Of a stretch of DNA of 21,977 nucleotides, positions 5,756 through 19,858 are shown piece after piece. The notes beneath the pieces are model-generated. The model had not been told where the DNA came from. It ran no database searches and saw only the letters and a program-made list of their open reading frames with translations. Position numbers and translations under genes: made by a program. This stretch comes from a virus. The stretch covers positions 1 through 21,977 of the IMG/VR virus record IMGVR_UViG_3300023116_000404, one strand, 5' to 3'. How positions within the stretch are numbered: position 1 is the first letter of the stretch; the number at the start of each line of letters is the position of its first letter.

Positions 5756-5769
5756 TTGCTGAGGTGATT

Positions 5770-6807
5770 ATGTTATATTTTGATAGATCTATATTTGGCA
5801 CTGAAAAACATCTTACTTATAATAAGAAAAAGTTTGTTTGGAAAAATGATATAGAAAGTGAGTACACAAGTTCTGTAGAGTTTAAAAACATAGCGCAAAC
5901 ATTTGATTTTAACATACCTTCTTTATTCCCAGATAGTTACATGAAAATGTGTAAAAACATAAGTACAACTAACTTGGCTAGATGTATTCCCGCACCAATT
6001 ATAAAAGAATCATGTCAAAGATATTGTGATACGTATGACAAGTTTTTAGAAAAATATAATGATCACAAGTATTTACCTGTTTTAGAAACTACAGAGAAGT
6101 TTATAAATCGGCTAAAAAGACCAAAGGTGGATAGAATTAGATACGCAGCAATAAATGCATCAAACGTTAATCTTCCGGGTTTCGTTATGACTAATAAGCA
6201 TTTAAACACGCCTGTTTATTCTAGGTTAAATACGAAGACTGGAAGGTTGACTGTTGTTGATGGACCAAATGTTTTAACATTGAAAAAGAGTTATAGAAAC
6301 ATGTTAGCTAATTGCATGCAGGTAGATTTTAACAGTATGGAGCCTAGGCTTTTGTTAGCAATATTAGGTATAAAAATAGATGGTGATTTATACAGCTGGG
6401 TCGGCGAAAAGACAGGTATAAAAGAAGAAAGATCAAAGTTAAAGATAAAAATTATTACTAGCTTGTATGGCGGTACAAAAGTAAAAGAAATCAATGATTT
6501 ATTTGCTGTTGATGAATGGAATGATCAACTTCACAAAAGTATAAAGAGTAACAAAATAGAAAATTATTTTGGTCGTGTAGTTGATGTAAGTGACACAGAT
6601 AAAAATAACTTATTAGCTATATACATACAATCATCAGCAGTTGACGCATCTTTATTAGGTTTTAACTGGTTAGTAGATAATTATAAGTTAGATCCATACT
6701 GGATAATACATGATGCGTTAATATTTAAATGTACTGATGTAGATTTACCTAAAAGTCTAAAAATTACGGATGATATATTTTTACCAGTCGAATATACGGA
6801 GATATAA
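5770..6807 (+). CDS. Mini family A DNA polymerase (palm/fingers core only)
   Basis: A 345-residue protein; the ATG at 5770 is chosen over the in-frame GTG at 5764 because GAGG (5761-5764) lies at the right distance only from the ATG. Family A landmarks occur in order. 'TKTGRLTVVDGPN' at 155-167 matches the TGRLSS..PN segment. 'DFNSMEPRLL' at 186-195 is motif A, with D186, E191 and R193. 'RSKLKIKIITSLYGG' at 221-235 is motif B, with R221, K225 and Y233 matching E. coli R754, K758 and Y766. 'YFGRV' is at 266-270 and Q287 sits where Q849 does. 'IHDALIF' at 313-319 is motif C, with catalytic D315. All catalytic aspartates are present. The protein is far shorter than a Klenow fragment (about 605 residues): I see no 3'-5' exonuclease motifs in the first 150 residues, and the A-to-B distance is short. 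The residue matching Phe762 is Ile229. It could be a reduced replicative polymerase using a separate exonuclease, or a repair enzyme. Confidence 0.75.
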   Translation: MLYFDRSIFGTEKHLTYNKKKFVWKNDIESEYTSSVEFKNIAQTFDFNIPSLFPDSYMKMCKNISTTNLARCIPAPIIKESCQRYCDTYDKFLEKYNDHKYLPVLETTEKFINRLKRPKVDRIRYAAINASNVNLPGFVMTNKHLNTPVYSRLNTKTGRLTVVDGPNVLTLKKSYRNMLANCMQVDFNSMEPRLLLAILGIKIDGDLYSWVGEKTGIKEERSKLKIKIITSLYGGTKVKEINDLFAVDEWNDQLHKSIKSNKIENYFGRVVDVSDTDKNNLLAIYIQSSAVDASLLGFNWLVDNYKLDPYWIIHDALIFKCTDVDLPKSLKITDDIFLPVEYTEI

Positions 6808-7410
6808 ATGAGTAGTTTATATGATTACATAATAGCAGAAACAACCGGGGGAAGTGGCTCGGGTAGTAAAACAACAACGCCTAAACCAAAGCCAAAACCA
6901 AAGCCTAAAAATAATTCAACCCCAATTAAAAAATTAGCTGCTTCAACGGAAAGTGCACTAGTTGGTAAGAAGTATGATGAAATAGCTAAGAAATATAGAT
7001 TGGCTTCTGAAACAAATCCGGCTAAATTAATGCGTGAATTTAATATCGATTATACATATAATGGAAATAATTTTGGTGATTTACTTTCACATGTTTTTGT
7101 TGAAGGTTTTGCAAAACATCAAGACATTCAACAAGTTATTGATAAAGCTACATTAGTTGAAAGTAACACTGGACAAAAGGGTGTGCTTTTTGAGGTTAAT
7201 ACATTCGCTTTTGGTTATTCTCCTAGCAACGTTGCTTTTTGGATTAAAGATACTATCAAAGCAAAGCACAGAATAAATCAAATAAAAGGTCAAAAGACTT
7301 TTCTTGATAGACACTTGAGAATAGAAGCAATTCCCGGTCAAACACATTTAATTATTTATTTTGCAAACAGAGCAAAAAACTGGGGCATTGCGCAACCGGT
7401 AAGATTTTGA
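6808..7410 (+). CDS. Unknown phage protein with Pro-Lys linker
   Basis: A 200-residue protein that I do not recognise. The ATG follows the polymerase stop directly (TAAATG) and has GGAG about six bases upstream. Residues 1-20 are a short hydrophobic helix followed by 'TTGGSGSGS'. Residues about 22-40 are a Thr/Pro/Lys linker with the dipeptide PK repeated five times. The rest is a mixed alpha/beta domain rich in Lys and aromatic residues, with no cysteines and no catalytic signature I can name. The basic, linker-bearing layout would suit a DNA-binding or virion-associated protein. The tight spacing places it in the polymerase transcription unit. Real gene, function unknown. Confidence 0.7.
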   Translation: MSSLYDYIIAETTGGSGSGSKTTTPKPKPKPKPKNNSTPIKKLAASTESALVGKKYDEIAKKYRLASETNPAKLMREFNIDYTYNGNNFGDLLSHVFVEGFAKHQDIQQVIDKATLVESNTGQKGVLFEVNTFAFGYSPSNVAFWIKDTIKAKHRINQIKGQKTFLDRHLRIEAIPGQTHLIIYFANRAKNWGIAQPVRF

Positions 7411-12253: not shown

Positions 12254-14755
12254 ATGTACAATAAAGAACAAGTTTTAGAAAAAACACTGGAGTATTTCAA
12301 AGGAGATGATCTTGCAGCTAATGTGTTTGTAACAAAATATGCTCTTCGAGATTTAGAAGACAATTATTTTGAATTAACACCCGATGATATGCATAAGCGT
12401 TTAGCTAAGGAATTTGCGCGGGTAGAAGAAAAATACCCTAATGCAATGAGTGAAGATGAAATATATGGTTATCTAAAAGATTTTAAATACATTGTGCCAC
12501 AAGGGTCACCAATGAGTGGTATTGGCAATCAGTTTCAAATACAATCAATATCTAATTGTTTTGTTGTTGAGTCGCCACATGATTCATATGCTGGTATTTT
12601 AAAATCAGATCAAGAACAAGTCCAGATTATGAAAAGACGTGGTGGTGTTGGTTTTGACATATCGAATATAAGACCACGTGGATTGTCGTGTGAAAATGCT
12701 GCAAGAAGTACAGATGGTATAGAGTTATTTATGGAAAGATTTTCTAATTCTTGCCGTGAAGTTGCACAAGGCGGAAGAAGAGGCGCACTAATGTTATCTA
12801 TTTCAGTTCACCATCCACAAGTTTTAGATTTTATTAAAATAAAGCAAGATTTAAAAAAGGTAACTGGTGCAAACATCTCTGTCAGGGTTACAGACGAATT
12901 TATGGAAGCAGTTAAACTTGGTCAGCGATATGAACAGAGGTGGCCGATAGATGCTATTGAACCAGAAATTGTGAATACTGATGTCTACGCGATGGAAGTT
13001 TGGAATGAGTTGATAACTTGTGCACATGCTTCTGCAGAGCCCGGAGTATTGTTTTGGGATACTGCTACAAGAATGACGCCTTCAGACATATACTCTACAG
13101 ATGGTTTTGCTTCAACTAGTACTAATCCATGCGGTGAAATTATTTTGTCTCCATACGATAGCTGTAGACTTATGCTTGTTAATCTTACTAATTTTGTCGA
13201 TAATGCTTGGTCAACGGAGGCCACTTTTGATTTTGAAAAATATGGCACTGTTGTTAGAAAGGCACAGAGATTAATGGACAATATGATTGACTTAGAAATA
13301 GAACAAATTGATAAAATTCTTGCCAAAATAGACAGAGATGAAGAGCCAGATGAAGTGAAATATTATGAAAGATCACTGTGGCACAATATAAGACAAGCTG
13401 CCATTAATGGTAGACGCACAGGTTTAGGTATTACTGGTTTAGGTGACGCCATAGCTATGGTAGGTCTTCAATATGGTGAAAAGTCAGTTGATTTTGTTGA
13501 GAACATTTATAAAAATTTAGCAATATATTCTTACAAGGAATCTATAAAGTTAGCTAAAGAACGTGGTGCATTCCCTATATTTGACATTGAAAAGGAAATA
13601 AGTCATCCATTTTTAGATAGAATTTTCGAACAGTTAGAAGATGAAGACATTGAGACTTATAATGAATATGGTCGTAGAAATATTGCAAATACAACTACAG
13701 CCCCAGCTGGATCAGTATCTTGTTTAACACAAACTTCTTCTGGTATTGAGCCTGCATTCATGTTGTATTATAAAAGAAGAAGAAAGATTAATCCACAAGA
13801 CAAAGATGCTAAAGTAGATTTTGTTGATGACTTAGGTGATAAGTGGCAAGAGTATTATGTATACCATCACAAGTTCAAAGATTGGATGGATTCTACTGAT
13901 CCTGAGTGTGATTGGCACGCAGATGATTTATCTATAGCAGTTTCTCACAGTCCTTATGCAGGTGCAACAGCAAACGAAATTGATTGGCGAGCAAAAGTTA
14001 AATTGCAAGCTGCAGCTCAAAAGTGGATTTGCCATGCAATATCAAATACAACAAATTTACCGGCAGATATTGATGTTAAAACTGTTAAAGATATCTACAT
14101 GATGGGTTGGGAATTAGGATGTAAAGGAATAACAGTTTATAGAGACGGTTCTAGAAGTGGTGTTCTTGTTTCTGCTGATGATAAAAAAGAAGATAGAACA
14201 ACTAGTATCGTTGAAAGACATGCACCTAAGAGACCTGAGACTTTGGAATGCAATATTGTGCATACTAGTGTTAAAGGTGAAAAGTGGGTTGTTTTAGTAG
14301 GACTAATGGATAACAAGCCTTACGAAGTAATAGGCGGGAAAGCTGATTTAATAGAAATACCTAGAAAACATAAAAAAGCAACGCTAGTAAAGAGATCTTT
14401 CAAAACTCAAAATAGTAAATATGATTTGCTAATTGGTGAAGGTGATGAAGAGTTGGTAATAAAAGATGTTGTTTCAGTATTTGATAATCCTAATCATGCC
14501 GGTTATACACGTGTAATTTCTACTTCATTGCGCCATGGTGTCCCTGTACAGTTTTTAGTAGAACAAATGCAAAAAGATAAAGAAGCTGACTTATTTTCTT
14601 TTTCAAAAGTTATTGCTCGTGTACTTAAAAATTATATAGTTGATGGTACTAAGGCAAGTGTTTCTATTTGCGAAAACTGTGGAGCAGAAGGCACTTTAGT
14701 TTATCAAGAAGGCTGTCAAACTTGTACTTCTTGTGGATTTGGCGCATGCGGATAA
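12254..14755 (+). CDS. nrdJ: Class II (adenosylcobalamin-dependent) ribonucleotide reductase
   Basis: An 833-residue protein that reduces ribonucleotides to deoxyribonucleotides. 'SNCFVVESP' holds the first redox cysteine, C102. 'NPCGEI' at 291-296 holds the catalytic N291, the radical cysteine C293 and E295. 'TTAPAGSVSCL' matches the phosphate-binding TAPTGS loop. The C-terminal 'CENCGAEGTLVYQEGCQTC' followed by CGFGACG is the cysteine-rich, zinc-ribbon-like end of NrdJ enzymes, which also carries the re-reducing cysteines. There is no NrdB-like radical subunit beside it, as expected for class II, which works with or without oxygen but needs a B12 cofactor from the host or its medium. The gene is translationally close to the helicase, its SD lying in the end of that gene, and it ends the replication run at a terminator. 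Confidence 0.92.
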   Translation: MYNKEQVLEKTLEYFKGDDLAANVFVTKYALRDLEDNYFELTPDDMHKRLAKEFARVEEKYPNAMSEDEIYGYLKDFKYIVPQGSPMSGIGNQFQIQSISNCFVVESPHDSYAGILKSDQEQVQIMKRRGGVGFDISNIRPRGLSCENAARSTDGIELFMERFSNSCREVAQGGRRGALMLSISVHHPQVLDFIKIKQDLKKVTGANISVRVTDEFMEAVKLGQRYEQRWPIDAIEPEIVNTDVYAMEVWNELITCAHASAEPGVLFWDTATRMTPSDIYSTDGFASTSTNPCGEIILSPYDSCRLMLVNLTNFVDNAWSTEATFDFEKYGTVVRKAQRLMDNMIDLEIEQIDKILAKIDRDEEPDEVKYYERSLWHNIRQAAINGRRTGLGITGLGDAIAMVGLQYGEKSVDFVENIYKNLAIYSYKESIKLAKERGAFPIFDIEKEISHPFLDRIFEQLEDEDIETYNEYGRRNIANTTTAPAGSVSCLTQTSSGIEPAFMLYYKRRRKINPQDKDAKVDFVDDLGDKWQEYYVYHHKFKDWMDSTDPECDWHADDLSIAVSHSPYAGATANEIDWRAKVKLQAAAQKWICHAISNTTNLPADIDVKTVKDIYMMGWELGCKGITVYRDGSRSGVLVSADDKKEDRTTSIVERHAPKRPETLECNIVHTSVKGEKWVVLVGLMDNKPYEVIGGKADLIEIPRKHKKATLVKRSFKTQNSKYDLLIGEGDEELVIKDVVSVFDNPNHAGYTRVISTSLRHGVPVQFLVEQMQKDKEADLFSFSKVIARVLKNYIVDGTKASVSICENCGAEGTLVYQEGCQTCTSCGFGACG

Positions 14756-14835: not shown

Positions 14836-15441
14836 ATGCATTGGACAACAGAACATGGTTCGAATATTCTCGAATTACAACTAAGACACAACCCTGTTAT
14901 TATTCGCGTTAATGAATTTAATGAACAATCAGCATCTGATTTTTCTAAGCAAATTGGGTTAGCACACAACACTGGGCAAGACGTTATTCCTATTGTTATT
15001 GACAGTTACGGCGGTCAAGTTTATAGTTTGATGTCAATGATTGCTTCAATAAAAGCTTCAACTTTGCCAATAGCTACTATAGTTGAAGGAAAAGCAATGA
15101 GCTGTGGTGTGTTATTAGCTTCTTGCGGCACAAAAGGTTATAGATATGTAACTGAAGATGCAACATTAATGATACATGATGTTTCTTCTATGCAGTATGG
15201 TAAAAATGCAGAGTTACAAGCAAGTGCTGATGAAACAAAAAGATTAAACGAAAAGATTTACAAAATTTTAGATACAAATTGCGGAAAAGATCCCGGTTAT
15301 TTCAACAAAGAAGTATTTAATAGAGGACGGGCAGATTGGTTTGTCACCCCGGAAGAAGCAATTGCAATAGGTTTGACAGATCACATAAAAATGCCGAAGT
15401 TCCACATAATTAGTAAGTGTGAAATTAATTTTGTTGGTTAG
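14836..15441 (+). CDS. clpP: ClpP-like serine peptidase
   Basis: A 201-residue protein, the size of bacterial ClpP. 'VIDSYGGQVYSLMSMI' (54-69) matches the oxyanion SPGG region, with SYGG in place of SPGG. The nucleophile is S89 in 'GKAMSCGVLLASCG', the general base H114 in 'LMIHDVS', and the third member D167 in 'ADWFVTPEEAIAIGLTD', so the triad is complete. No propeptide is obvious. In tailed phages, ClpP-fold peptidases often act as prohead proteases, but those lie among capsid genes; here the gene follows RNR and precedes a Dps-like gene. It may instead form a barrel that uses the host ClpX/ClpA unfoldase or competes with host ClpP. The start has AGGA upstream. Family assignment is sure; role is inference. 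Confidence 0.85.
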   Translation: MHWTTEHGSNILELQLRHNPVIIRVNEFNEQSASDFSKQIGLAHNTGQDVIPIVIDSYGGQVYSLMSMIASIKASTLPIATIVEGKAMSCGVLLASCGTKGYRYVTEDATLMIHDVSSMQYGKNAELQASADETKRLNEKIYKILDTNCGKDPGYFNKEVFNRGRADWFVTPEEAIAIGLTDHIKMPKFHIISKCEINFVG

Positions 15442-16820: not shown

Positions 16821-16847
16821 TGGTATAATCTTATTACTATAAGATTA
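16821..16847 (+). promoter_or_regulatory. Extended -10 promoter overlapping a palindrome, before glnA
   Basis: TGGTATAAT (16821-16829) is a perfect extended -10 element (TGnTATAAT). No good -35 is seen at the usual distance, as expected for that type. TAATCTTA (16826-16833) and TAAGATTA (16840-16847) form a perfect eight-base inverted repeat with a six-base loop that overlaps the -10 and the likely start site. AAATT (16817-16821) and AATTT (16850-16854) extend it across an internal loop, ending next to the Shine-Dalgarno GGAG (16855-16858). It could be an operator or a leader hairpin. Confidence 0.55.
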
Positions 16848-16863
16848 CTAATTTGGAGATATA

Positions 16864-17934
16864 ATGAAAACTATTTTAGAATATGTTTGGCTAGATGGAT
16901 ATAAAACACAGAATCTAAGATCAAAAATAAAGGTTGTCAATACTGCTGATATAGATTTTAGTTTTGGTGATAACATGCCTGAAATATCAAAAATACCTGA
17001 TTGGAATTTTGATGGCTCTTCTACAAAACAAGCAGAGGGGGATAACTCTGAATGTTTGTTGAAACCTGTAAGAGTTTATAGGTGGCCATATTCAATAAAA
17101 AACCACTTTGTTGTACTTTGCGAAGTTTACAATGCAAATGGTATACCACACGTTACTAATAAAAGACATTTGTTAGAAAAATTACATAAAAAATATTTGC
17201 ATGATCATTTCTGGTTAGGTTTTGAGCAAGAATATTTTATTACAAAGAATAGAAGACCGCTTGGCTTTCCGGAAATGGGAACTCCTGGACCTCAAGGCCA
17301 ATATTATTGTGGTGTAGGAACAAATCAAGCTGTTGGTCGTAAATTAACTCTCCAACACATGTCAGCTTGTATTGACATGGGGATGGATATTACTGGCACA
17401 AATGCGGAAGTTGCTATTGGTCAATGGGAATATCAAATATTTGGTAAGTCACCTTTGAAAGCGGCTGATGATGTAATAATTTCTAGGTATGTTTTAAAAC
17501 TATTAGCAGAAGATTATGGATATGATATTAACTTTGATCCAAAGCCAATCGACGGTGACTGGAATGGGAGTGGTATGCATACTAATTTTTCAAACGAGTA
17601 CATGCGAGAAACTGGCGGAGAAACTTATCTTAAAGATTTAATGAGTATTTTTAAAGAAAAGCATCATGCTAATATTAAAGATTATGGCGAAGGCAACAGT
17701 ATGAGATTGACTGGTAGGCATGAAACACAGCATATTGATGTTTTCACTTACGGTATTGCTGATAGAGGCGCATCAATTAGGGTTTCGAATGATTTTGTGC
17801 GCAATGGTTATAAAGGTTACTTAGAAGACAGAAGACCCGCCAGTAATGCCAATCCTTATGTTGTATCTATTGCTATAATAGAAAACAGCTGTAGTGGTAC
17901 AATTGAATGCTCGGGAAGAAACAATGAAAAATAA
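16864..17934 (+). CDS. glnA: Glutamine synthetase, type II (GSII)
   Basis: A 356-residue protein, the length of eukaryotic and rhizobial GSII (about 350) and much shorter than bacterial GSI (about 470). It makes glutamine from glutamate, ammonia and ATP. GSII blocks follow in order: 'EYVWLDG' (6-12), 'WNFDGSSTKQAEGD' (47-60), 'FEQEYF' with metal ligands E121/E123 (120-125), 'PQGQYYCGVG' (143-152), 'NAEVAIGQWEYQI' (180-192), 'WNGSGMHTNFS' with H239, 'RLTGRHET' (281-288), 'YGIADRGASIRV' (296-307) and 'EDRRPASNANPY' (321-332). Every active-site residue I can check is present, so it is likely active. It has no adenylylation loop of the GSI type. The last 11 bases overlap the dam start. The gene has its own extended -10 promoter. 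Base composition is like its neighbours, so any acquisition is not recent. Confidence 0.93.
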   Translation: MKTILEYVWLDGYKTQNLRSKIKVVNTADIDFSFGDNMPEISKIPDWNFDGSSTKQAEGDNSECLLKPVRVYRWPYSIKNHFVVLCEVYNANGIPHVTNKRHLLEKLHKKYLHDHFWLGFEQEYFITKNRRPLGFPEMGTPGPQGQYYCGVGTNQAVGRKLTLQHMSACIDMGMDITGTNAEVAIGQWEYQIFGKSPLKAADDVIISRYVLKLLAEDYGYDINFDPKPIDGDWNGSGMHTNFSNEYMRETGGETYLKDLMSIFKEKHHANIKDYGEGNSMRLTGRHETQHIDVFTYGIADRGASIRVSNDFVRNGYKGYLEDRRPASNANPYVVSIAIIENSCSGTIECSGRNNEK

Positions 17935-19010: not shown

Positions 19011-19113
19011 TAGACTGTAGTTGCAGTCACATATGGTCATGATACGGGCACGACGAGATGCTTGCTTTCAAAAGCCGGTGGAGACCATCAAAAAAAACCC
19101 GTATCTCTTTTTT
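19011..19113 (+). ncRNA. Candidate structured RNA upstream of thyX
   Basis: This gap holds several complementary pairs. GACTG (19013-19017) and CAGTC (19024-19028) form a hairpin with a six-base loop. GATACGGG (19041-19048) and CCCGTATC (19098-19105) form a perfect eight-base long-range stem, followed by TCTTTTTT (19106-19113), as in an intrinsic terminator. ATGGTC (19033-19038) and GACCAT (19083-19088) are also perfectly complementary and cross the long stem, which would give a pseudoknot or an alternative fold. GCTT (19064-19067) and AAGC (19072-19075) form a small inner hairpin. The stretch is clearly richer in G and C than its surroundings. It does not match a tRNA, riboswitch or ribozyme that I can name. 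It could be a small RNA, or a cis-acting attenuator of thyX. Confidence 0.42.
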
Positions 19114-19135
19114 ATATAACATTGGTAGAAGTAAA

Positions 19136-19858
19136 ATGAAAATAGAAATATATAATGACGGAATTGGAAGTGTAGAATATGTACAACACATGGGCGAAGA
19201 CATCACTGTAGTAAATAGTGCTCGTGTTTCTTTTGGCAAACAGAAAGATAATGTTGATGACAAAGATAAAAAATTAATTAATTATCTCATAAAACATAAG
19301 CACACTAGCACATTAGAGCACAATGTTATAACTTTTAGGTTTGTCGTACCTTTATTTATCAGGTCTCAACATCACAGACACAGAACATGGTCTTACAATG
19401 AAATAAGCAGGCGTTATACAGATGTTAACTTAAATTTTTACAAACCTAAAAAATTTAGAACACAGCATACAAGTAATAGACAAGCTTCTAATCCGGATGA
19501 ATTAATCAATCCCCGGGTTTACCCAACATTAAGTTTGATAAAAGCATCTGAATTATTAGAGTGCAGAATTAGTGATTGTTTGCAAACGTTTAATGATCTA
19601 ATAGATGTTGGTGTTTGTAGAGAACAAGCTAGGATGATTTTACCTCAGTGTTTATATACGGAATACTACGGGACTTGTAATTTAAATAACCTTTTAAAGT
19701 TTTGTGCCTTAAGACTTCACGATGGTGCTCAGTGGGAAATACAGCAAGTGGCAAAAGCATGCTTAAAAATTGCAAAAAAACATTGGCCAATAACTGTGAA
19801 TGCATGGATAAATAATCTTTCAGATGAGGATCTTAAAGCAGAATTCCTATCTGTGTAA
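19136..19858 (+). CDS. thyX: Flavin-dependent thymidylate synthase
   Basis: A 240-residue protein of usual ThyX length. The ATG at 19136 is chosen because the protein then begins at the family's normal first strand; an in-frame ATG at 19058 would add 26 residues unlike ThyX, crossing the structured region. The signature RHRx7S is 'RHRTWSYNEISRRY', preceded by 'FVVPLFIRSQHH'. 'HTSTLEHNVITFRF' matches the FAD/substrate part. 'REQARMILPQCLYTEYYGT' matches the R-x2-R-x2-LP segment, although the first Arg-Glu-x-Ala-Arg is the only conserved pair I checked. It makes dTMP from dUMP with methylenetetrahydrofolate and NADPH, using FAD and yielding tetrahydrofolate, so no extra dihydrofolate reductase is needed. 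The upstream Shine-Dalgarno is weak (GTAGAAG), so translation may be modest or regulated. Confidence 0.93.
   Translation: MKIEIYNDGIGSVEYVQHMGEDITVVNSARVSFGKQKDNVDDKDKKLINYLIKHKHTSTLEHNVITFRFVVPLFIRSQHHRHRTWSYNEISRRYTDVNLNFYKPKKFRTQHTSNRQASNPDELINPRVYPTLSLIKASELLECRISDCLQTFNDLIDVGVCREQARMILPQCLYTEYYGTCNLNNLLKFCALRLHDGAQWEIQQVAKACLKIAKKHWPITVNAWINNLSDEDLKAEFLSV

What the first reader, a model, noticed from the sequence alone, without database searches (positions are those of the whole stretch)
16864..17934. Phage-encoded type II glutamine synthetase
Seen: a full-length GSII with all active-site blocks intact, its own extended -10 promoter, overlapping a dam gene. Known: GSII is typical of eukaryotes and a few bacterial groups, and lacks the adenylylation control of bacterial GSI. 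Inference: a phage enzyme outside host control could keep glutamine flowing into purine, CTP and amino-sugar synthesis under nitrogen limitation, in line with the RNR and ThyX genes in the same window.
Basis: partly seen in the sequence, partly recalled or inferred. Interest (0 to 1): 0.68.

Follow-up and report, generated by a model that had tools for sequence, protein, structure and literature searches.

The report
Phage-encoded type II glutamine synthetase
A virus of bacteria carries an apparently working copy of the enzyme that makes glutamine; such copies turn out to be common in aquatic phages, and one phage lineage seems to have acquired unrelated versions of it, which suggests the phages gain from having one.

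Summary
The observation largely holds. ORF 16864-17934 is a full-length type II glutamine synthetase (GSII): best PDB matches are all GSII (E 2e-92). The predicted fold (pLDDT 90.6) matches Streptomyces coelicolor GSII over 338 residues at 1.7 Å. Every metal, glutamate, ATP and ammonium residue checked is present. The window is a virus record with phage neighbours. The 'own promoter' is not supported: TGnTATAAT occurs 4 times against 2.8 expected. The dam overlap is real but probably only 11 nt.

Phage GSII is not rare. At least 586 IMG/VR stretches encode relatives, and papers already report glutamine synthetase in phages, usually as 'glnA'. The window's GSII belongs to a virus-only clade (support 100/99).

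The new evidence is evolutionary. Phages sharing the window's RNR-ClpP-amidase-ThyX backbone carry GSIIs from two separate branches (AU p = 0.0098), so GSII was gained or replaced more than once. Related GSIIs evolve under purifying selection (dN/dS 0.07-0.11). In six related contigs GSII lies near a phage glyoxylate shunt.

Partner glutamine-using enzymes and PII are mostly absent. The most likely role is feeding the host's own glutamine-dependent nucleotide synthesis. This is a new member of a known kind.

The parts
16864..17934 (+). Type II glutamine synthetase (GSII), 356 aa
17924..18796 (+). Dam-type adenine-N6 DNA methyltransferase; ATG at 17924 preferred here over the mechanical GTG at 17894, giving an 11-nt overlap with the GS stop
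   Evidence: TIGR00571 123.6 bits, cut-off 114.85
12254..14755 (+). Class II (adenosylcobalamin-dependent) ribonucleotide reductase, NrdJ
   Evidence: TIGR02504 480 bits, over cut-off
14836..15441 (+). ClpP-like protease, conserved neighbour of GS in the phage lineage
15915..16802 (+). Peptidoglycan-binding N-acetylmuramoyl-L-alanine amidase (lysis), conserved neighbour
19058..19858 (+). FAD-dependent thymidylate synthase ThyX; the conserved part begins about 40 residues in, so the true start may be downstream
16821..16829 (+). TGGTATAAT, the extended -10-like sequence; not above chance
16826..16847 (.). Perfect 9-bp inverted repeat TAATCTTAT-TACT-ATAAGATTA overlapping the -10-like site; not seen upstream of GS in relatives, significance not shown

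Best explanation
The ORF is a catalytically competent phage GSII (EC 6.3.1.2) in a T4-like aquatic phage. During infection it would make glutamine from glutamate, ammonium and ATP, as a GSII that lacks the adenylylation segment of enterobacterial GSI. The glutamine would feed the host's own glutamine-dependent steps (purine ring, GMP, CTP and carbamoyl-phosphate synthesis), whose products the phage's RNR, ThyX and nucleotide-kinase-like genes turn into dNTPs. Shown here: identity, complete active site, fold, viral context, neighbouring genes, purifying selection in related phage GSIIs, and more than one acquisition or replacement within one phage lineage. Inferred: enzyme activity, escape from host regulation, and nucleotide synthesis as the main sink.
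For: Fold and catalytic residues: Z 43.1, rmsd 1.7 A over 338 residues to S. coelicolor GSII, against Z about 30 for GSI. D50, S53, E121, E123, E182, E189, H239, R281, E287, R301, R306, E321 and R323 all match maize GSII and are invariant in 79 viral relatives. Purifying selection: dN/dS 0.113 and 0.067 for two pairs of related phage GSIIs; dS is about 1 or more, so approximate. Repeated acquisition: the backbone tree (RNR+DnaB+ClpP+amidase, five of six inner branches starred) puts L253 and L256 among phages carrying window-clade GSII, but their own GSII lies on the actinobacterial/eukaryotic side, and forcing them together is rejected at p = 0.0098. Nucleotide context: RNR, ThyX and Dam in the window and syntenic relatives; RNR matches in 20 of 40 GSII virus records; a DUF3310 gene, which matches PHROG 'nucleotide kinase' families, close downstream of GS in 90 loci of 15 lineages. 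Few glutamine-consuming partner domains in the phages.
Against: No expression or activity data. Replication genes are near many phage genes, so adjacency to RNR and ThyX is weak evidence for a nucleotide sink, and no control set of phages without GSII was examined. Most records are fragments, so absence of partner enzymes is not proof. The host is unknown.
Confidence: 0.7

Rival explanations
1. General nitrogen-stress gene: the phage GSII raises ammonium assimilation for all biosynthesis, mainly amino acids and capsid protein, in nitrogen-poor water.
For: Published interpretation for phage glnA and GS in estuarine viruses and moraphages.
Against: No PII gene in 40 GSII virus records. No other nitrogen-assimilation gene was recognised among the neighbour families that were annotated, though not all were, and no ammonium-transporter search was run.
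Confidence: 0.17
2. The enzyme ligates glutamate to another amine (polyamine, ethanolamine or a modified base) rather than ammonia.
For: GS-fold paralogues with such activities exist (GmaS appears among the weaker structural matches). A Dam gene is adjacent.
Against: Ammonium-site residues D50, S53 and E287 and the glutamate-site arginines are all retained and invariant. Structure and sequence are far closer to true GSII than to GmaS (Z 43 against 29-30).
Confidence: 0.06
3. The protein mainly acts by moonlighting: it binds host nitrogen regulators or mixes with host GS, and catalysis is incidental.
For: GS is known from general knowledge to act as a regulator in some bacteria (B. subtilis TnrA/GlnR).
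Against: The full catalytic set is kept, related GSIIs are under purifying selection, and GSIIs from separate branches were recruited in one phage lineage, which fits a shared activity better than a specific protein contact.
Confidence: 0.04
4. The contig is bacterial or a mis-binned fragment, so the GSII is a host gene.
For: The window is only a 22-kb fragment with no terminase or capsid gene identified in it.
Against: The record is IMG/VR. UvsX-like recombinase and phage SSB match PHROGs, plus DnaB-type helicase and amidase. The backbone is shared with other virus contigs, and a 964-aa window protein has a relative in the L253 virus record. The GSII clade is virus-only.
Confidence: 0.03

Closest known systems
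Streptomyces coelicolor GSII (PDB 4BAX) and bacterial GSIIb (Bacteroidota, Planctomycetota, Verrucomicrobiota, rhizobial glnII)
   Same: Fold, all active-site residues, length of the core, no GSI-type adenylylation segment
   Different: About 42-54% identical; the window sequence sits in a virus-only clade; NCBIfam GlnII score below the equivalog cut-off
Glutamine synthetase of moraphages and jumbo phages (PMC12619734, PMC13037316)
   Same: Glutamine synthetase encoded by large phages; moraphages are aquatic and mostly predicted to infect Bacteroidota
   Different: The passages read report it as 'GS' or 'glnA' without class, tree or active-site analysis. Whether those are the same clade was not tested. 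The huge-phage homologues LR756501, LR756502 and LR745206 are 42-50% identical to the window; the two clusters that hold them on the tree fall outside the window clade.
aceBA operon of a 179-kb T4-like ocean virus genome, TARA_ERS478052_N000008 (PMC5332604)
   Same: T4-like phage genome with isocitrate lyase and malate synthase, as in the window's relatives L165, L191, L198, L248, L253, L256
   Different: The paper's text does not mention glutamine; GSII with aceBA in one neighbourhood is seen here in relatives, not in the window itself

Membership tests
Glutamine synthetase type II (GSII) | Beta-grasp N-domain plus GS catalytic C-domain, about 330-370 aa, GSII-type fold | tested here: met
   Pfam PF03951 and PF00120 over cut-off; 356 aa; Z 37.6-43.1 to 21 GSII entries against 30.5 or less for GSI and related enzymes
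Glutamine synthetase type II (GSII) | Metal, ATP, glutamate and ammonium active-site residues conserved | tested here: met
   Residue mapping to maize GS 2D3A; roles of the residues taken from general knowledge of maize and human GS structures
Glutamine synthetase type II (GSII) | No GSI-type adenylylation segment (Tyr397 region) | tested here: met
   Structural alignment to enterobacterial GSI (1lgr) ends at residue 386; position of the tyrosine from general knowledge
Glutamine synthetase type II (GSII) | Decameric assembly | not testable with these tools
   Only a monomer could be predicted
NCBIfam GlnII equivalog (NF041605) | Score over the curated 500-bit cut-off | tested here: not met
   358.7 bits; the seven viral GSIIs in the isocitrate-lyase records score 343-451 bits, also below it, so it is a divergent GSII and not this equivalog
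Phage auxiliary metabolic gene | Metabolic gene in a true phage genome, among phage genes | tested here: met
Phage auxiliary metabolic gene | Maintained by selection | tested here: met
   dN/dS 0.07-0.11 in two pairs of relatives; more than one acquisition in one lineage. Shown for relatives, not for the window gene itself
Phage auxiliary metabolic gene | Expressed in infection and changes host metabolism | not testable with these tools
   No transcript or enzyme data

The most novel reading that the evidence does not exclude
GSII is a long-lived gene of aquatic phages rather than a series of recent host captures, and in one lineage it forms part of a phage-borne carbon-plus-nitrogen feed (glyoxylate shunt plus glutamine synthesis). 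Viruses may also have spread GSIIb among bacteria, helping to explain its patchy distribution.
Probability: 0.2. Interest if true: 0.62.

Novelty: new member of a known kind. Interest (0 to 1): 0.42.

Why it matters
It shows that phage 'glnA' genes in aquatic data include a large, structured family of complete type II enzymes, with evidence (purifying selection, more than one acquisition in one lineage) that the activity is worth having. That makes a simple experiment worthwhile: assay one, and test whether it raises phage yield when glutamine is scarce. The nearby glyoxylate-shunt genes suggest that some of these phages adjust carbon and nitrogen supply together.

Tried and rejected
Riboswitch or other known RNA upstream: no Rfam match at E up to 1 in the window.
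Promoter: not above chance. The RNA fold of 16838-16900 is not unusual (z -0.22); that stretch cuts the inverted repeat, so it does not test the hairpin itself.
Inverted repeat: 8 matches in the window against a mean of 4.2 in 20 first-order Markov sequences (range 0-9); not convincing and not seen in relatives.
Glutamine amidotransferase partners: nearly absent. PII: absent in 40 records.
MAG contigs L082, L083, L089 suspected of being phage: apart from GS, their flanks match none of the phage neighbour genes, so they are kept as bacterial.
GSI-like hits in 'Listeria phage' records of 5-7 kb: 26-28% identical, not GSII; left aside.
One clade of all viral GSII: 0 of 200 bootstrap trees show it. 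The deep order of viral and bacterial GSIIb is weakly supported and changed when four sequences were added, so no direction of transfer is claimed.
BFVD structure search: no full-length GSII among the listed viral predictions; a library gap, not evidence.
Host assignment: nearest annotated phages by helicase and recombinase are below 41% identity and infect many different hosts, so no host is claimed.

Full report
Check of the observation. The window is one virus record of 21,977 bases, linear and probably a fragment. The ORF 16864-17934 encodes 356 aa. It matches both glutamine synthetase Pfam domains, and the strongest PDB matches are plant, then yeast, Streptomyces and animal GSII (E 2e-92 and weaker), with GSI far behind (3e-16 or weaker). 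Aligned to maize GS (2D3A), the conserved catalytic positions are D50, S53, E121, E123, E182, E189, H239, R281, E287, R301, R306, E321 and R323, all identical to maize and invariant in 79 viral relatives (roles of these residues from general knowledge). AlphaFold2 gives mean pLDDT 90.6 and pTM 0.91; the best solved match is Streptomyces coelicolor GSII, Z 43.1, rmsd 1.7 Å over 338 residues, while GSI and related enzymes score 30.5 or less. The C-terminal 10 residues are not confidently modelled.

Two details of the finding need correction. The extended -10 sequence at 16821-16829 exists but is not above chance (4 in the window, 2.8 expected), the promoter scan shows no excess, and relatives do not share it. 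The dam gene probably starts at ATG 17924, giving an 11-nt overlap, the usual close packing of phage genes, rather than the GTG at 17894.

How common it is. Contigs run up to 297 kb. Annotated phage records hold only four GSII hits, all huge uncultured phages at 42-50% identity. Papers already report glutamine synthetase in jumbo phages, moraphages, estuarine viruses and putative Microcystis viruses, usually as glnA and without stating the class in the passages read. So phage glutamine synthetase as such is known.

Family tree. In a tree of 66 representatives the window GSII belongs to a clade of eight virus rows, support 100/99. Viral rows are strongly clustered (3 changes against about 22 for shuffled labels) but are not one clade in any of 200 bootstrap trees. 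The nearest bacterial sequences are GSIIb from Saprospiraceae, Planctomycetota, Verrucomicrobiota and others, in line with the published GSIIb distribution. The sequences were collected by similarity to the window and its viral relatives, and deep branches are weak and moved when four rows were added, so I claim neither relative diversity nor direction of transfer.

Neighbourhood and lineage. Syntenic relatives share UvsX, 5'-3' exonuclease, DnaB, class II RNR, ClpP, amidase and ThyX around GSII, with Dam in the window and L168. A 964-aa window protein has a relative in the L253 record. A tree of RNR, DnaB, ClpP and amidase puts the window with L168, sister to seven others; five of its six inner branches are starred and one is open. 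L253 and L256 nest among those seven, yet their GSIIs group with the actinobacterial and eukaryotic side, and joining them to the window GSII clade is rejected (log-likelihood 48 lower, AU p = 0.0098). The group was named after the tree was seen, so the p value is optimistic. In L253 GSII sits beside the amidase, as in the window; in L256 it lies elsewhere. GSII was therefore gained or replaced more than once within this lineage. dN/dS for two pairs of related GSIIs is 0.113 and 0.067 (the script stopped with a division error at the third pair, so only these two were obtained, and dS near 1 or above makes the ratios approximate).

A second metabolic cassette. In L165, L191, L198, L248, L253 and L256, a malate synthase and isocitrate lyase pair lies within about 10 kb of GSII; the lyases keep the KKCGH motif. 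Seven of 13 virus contigs found with this lyase also carry GSII, but the query came from a GSII contig, so this is not an unbiased rate. The pair is not in the window. An aceBA operon in a T4-like ocean virus is already published.

What it probably does. In 40 GSII virus records, class II glutamine amidotransferase domains occur in 2 and class I in 1. In an overlapping set of 40 records PII occurs in none, while RNR large-subunit matches occur in 20, 19 of them over the cut-off. A DUF3310 gene, matching PHROG nucleotide-kinase families, lies close downstream of GSII in 90 loci of 15 lineages. This fits glutamine being passed to the host's own nucleotide synthesis, with the phage's RNR and ThyX finishing the dNTPs. 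Adjacency in a replication region is weak evidence, no comparison set without GSII was examined, and most records are fragments. Identity and competence of the enzyme I hold at about 0.95; the nucleotide-supply role at about 0.65-0.7.

Verdict.

Noticed in passing
L165:9003-11763, L191:3367-6184, L198:3287-6179, L248:6428-9233, L253:6405-9206, L256:6414-9203: Malate synthase and isocitrate lyase pair (glyoxylate shunt) in phages syntenic with the window; lyases keep the KKCGH motif.
   Followed up: partly
L165:6355-6741, L171:6361-7361, L248:5057-5756: IscU/NifU-like and, in L171 and L248, IscA-like iron-sulphur scaffold genes in the same phage lineage, just before ClpP and GSII.
   Followed up: no
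L169:5263-6267 (also L196, L229): Adenylosuccinate synthetase (PurA-like) genes in GSII phages; the L169 one matches a PHROG annotated '2-aminooxy adenylosuccinate synthetase'. Whether it is PurZ-like was not tested.
   Followed up: no
window 5764-6807: 347-aa ORF with PolA-like motifs by eye (DFNSMEPR, IHDALIF) but no Pfam or PHROG match; possibly a reduced DNA polymerase.
   Followed up: no
window 6808-7410: 200-aa ORF with a weak, below-cut-off match to the HamA family (E 0.0016), with a proline-lysine repeat near its start.
   Followed up: no
L168:9179-10059, L168:11104-11427, L171:13496-13837, L171:14262-15209: Several small ORFs begin with a similar basic tag (MKISKRQLKRIIREE type), perhaps a shared targeting or prohead sequence.
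   Followed up: no
viral GSII loci, e.g. L005, L036, L048, L070: Many viral GSIIs have C-terminal extensions (up to 427 aa in total, against about 332-348 for most bacterial ones), some ending in an acidic LLxEYREE-like stretch.
   Followed up: no
L211 compared with L082, L083, L089: The viral-contig GSII of L211 is 65-70% identical to GSII on Saprospiraceae/Chitinophagales MAG contigs, suggesting fairly recent exchange.
   Followed up: partly
window 16826-16847: Perfect 9-bp inverted repeat overlapping the -10-like site before GSII; could be an operator, but not shown to be more than chance.
   Followed up: partly
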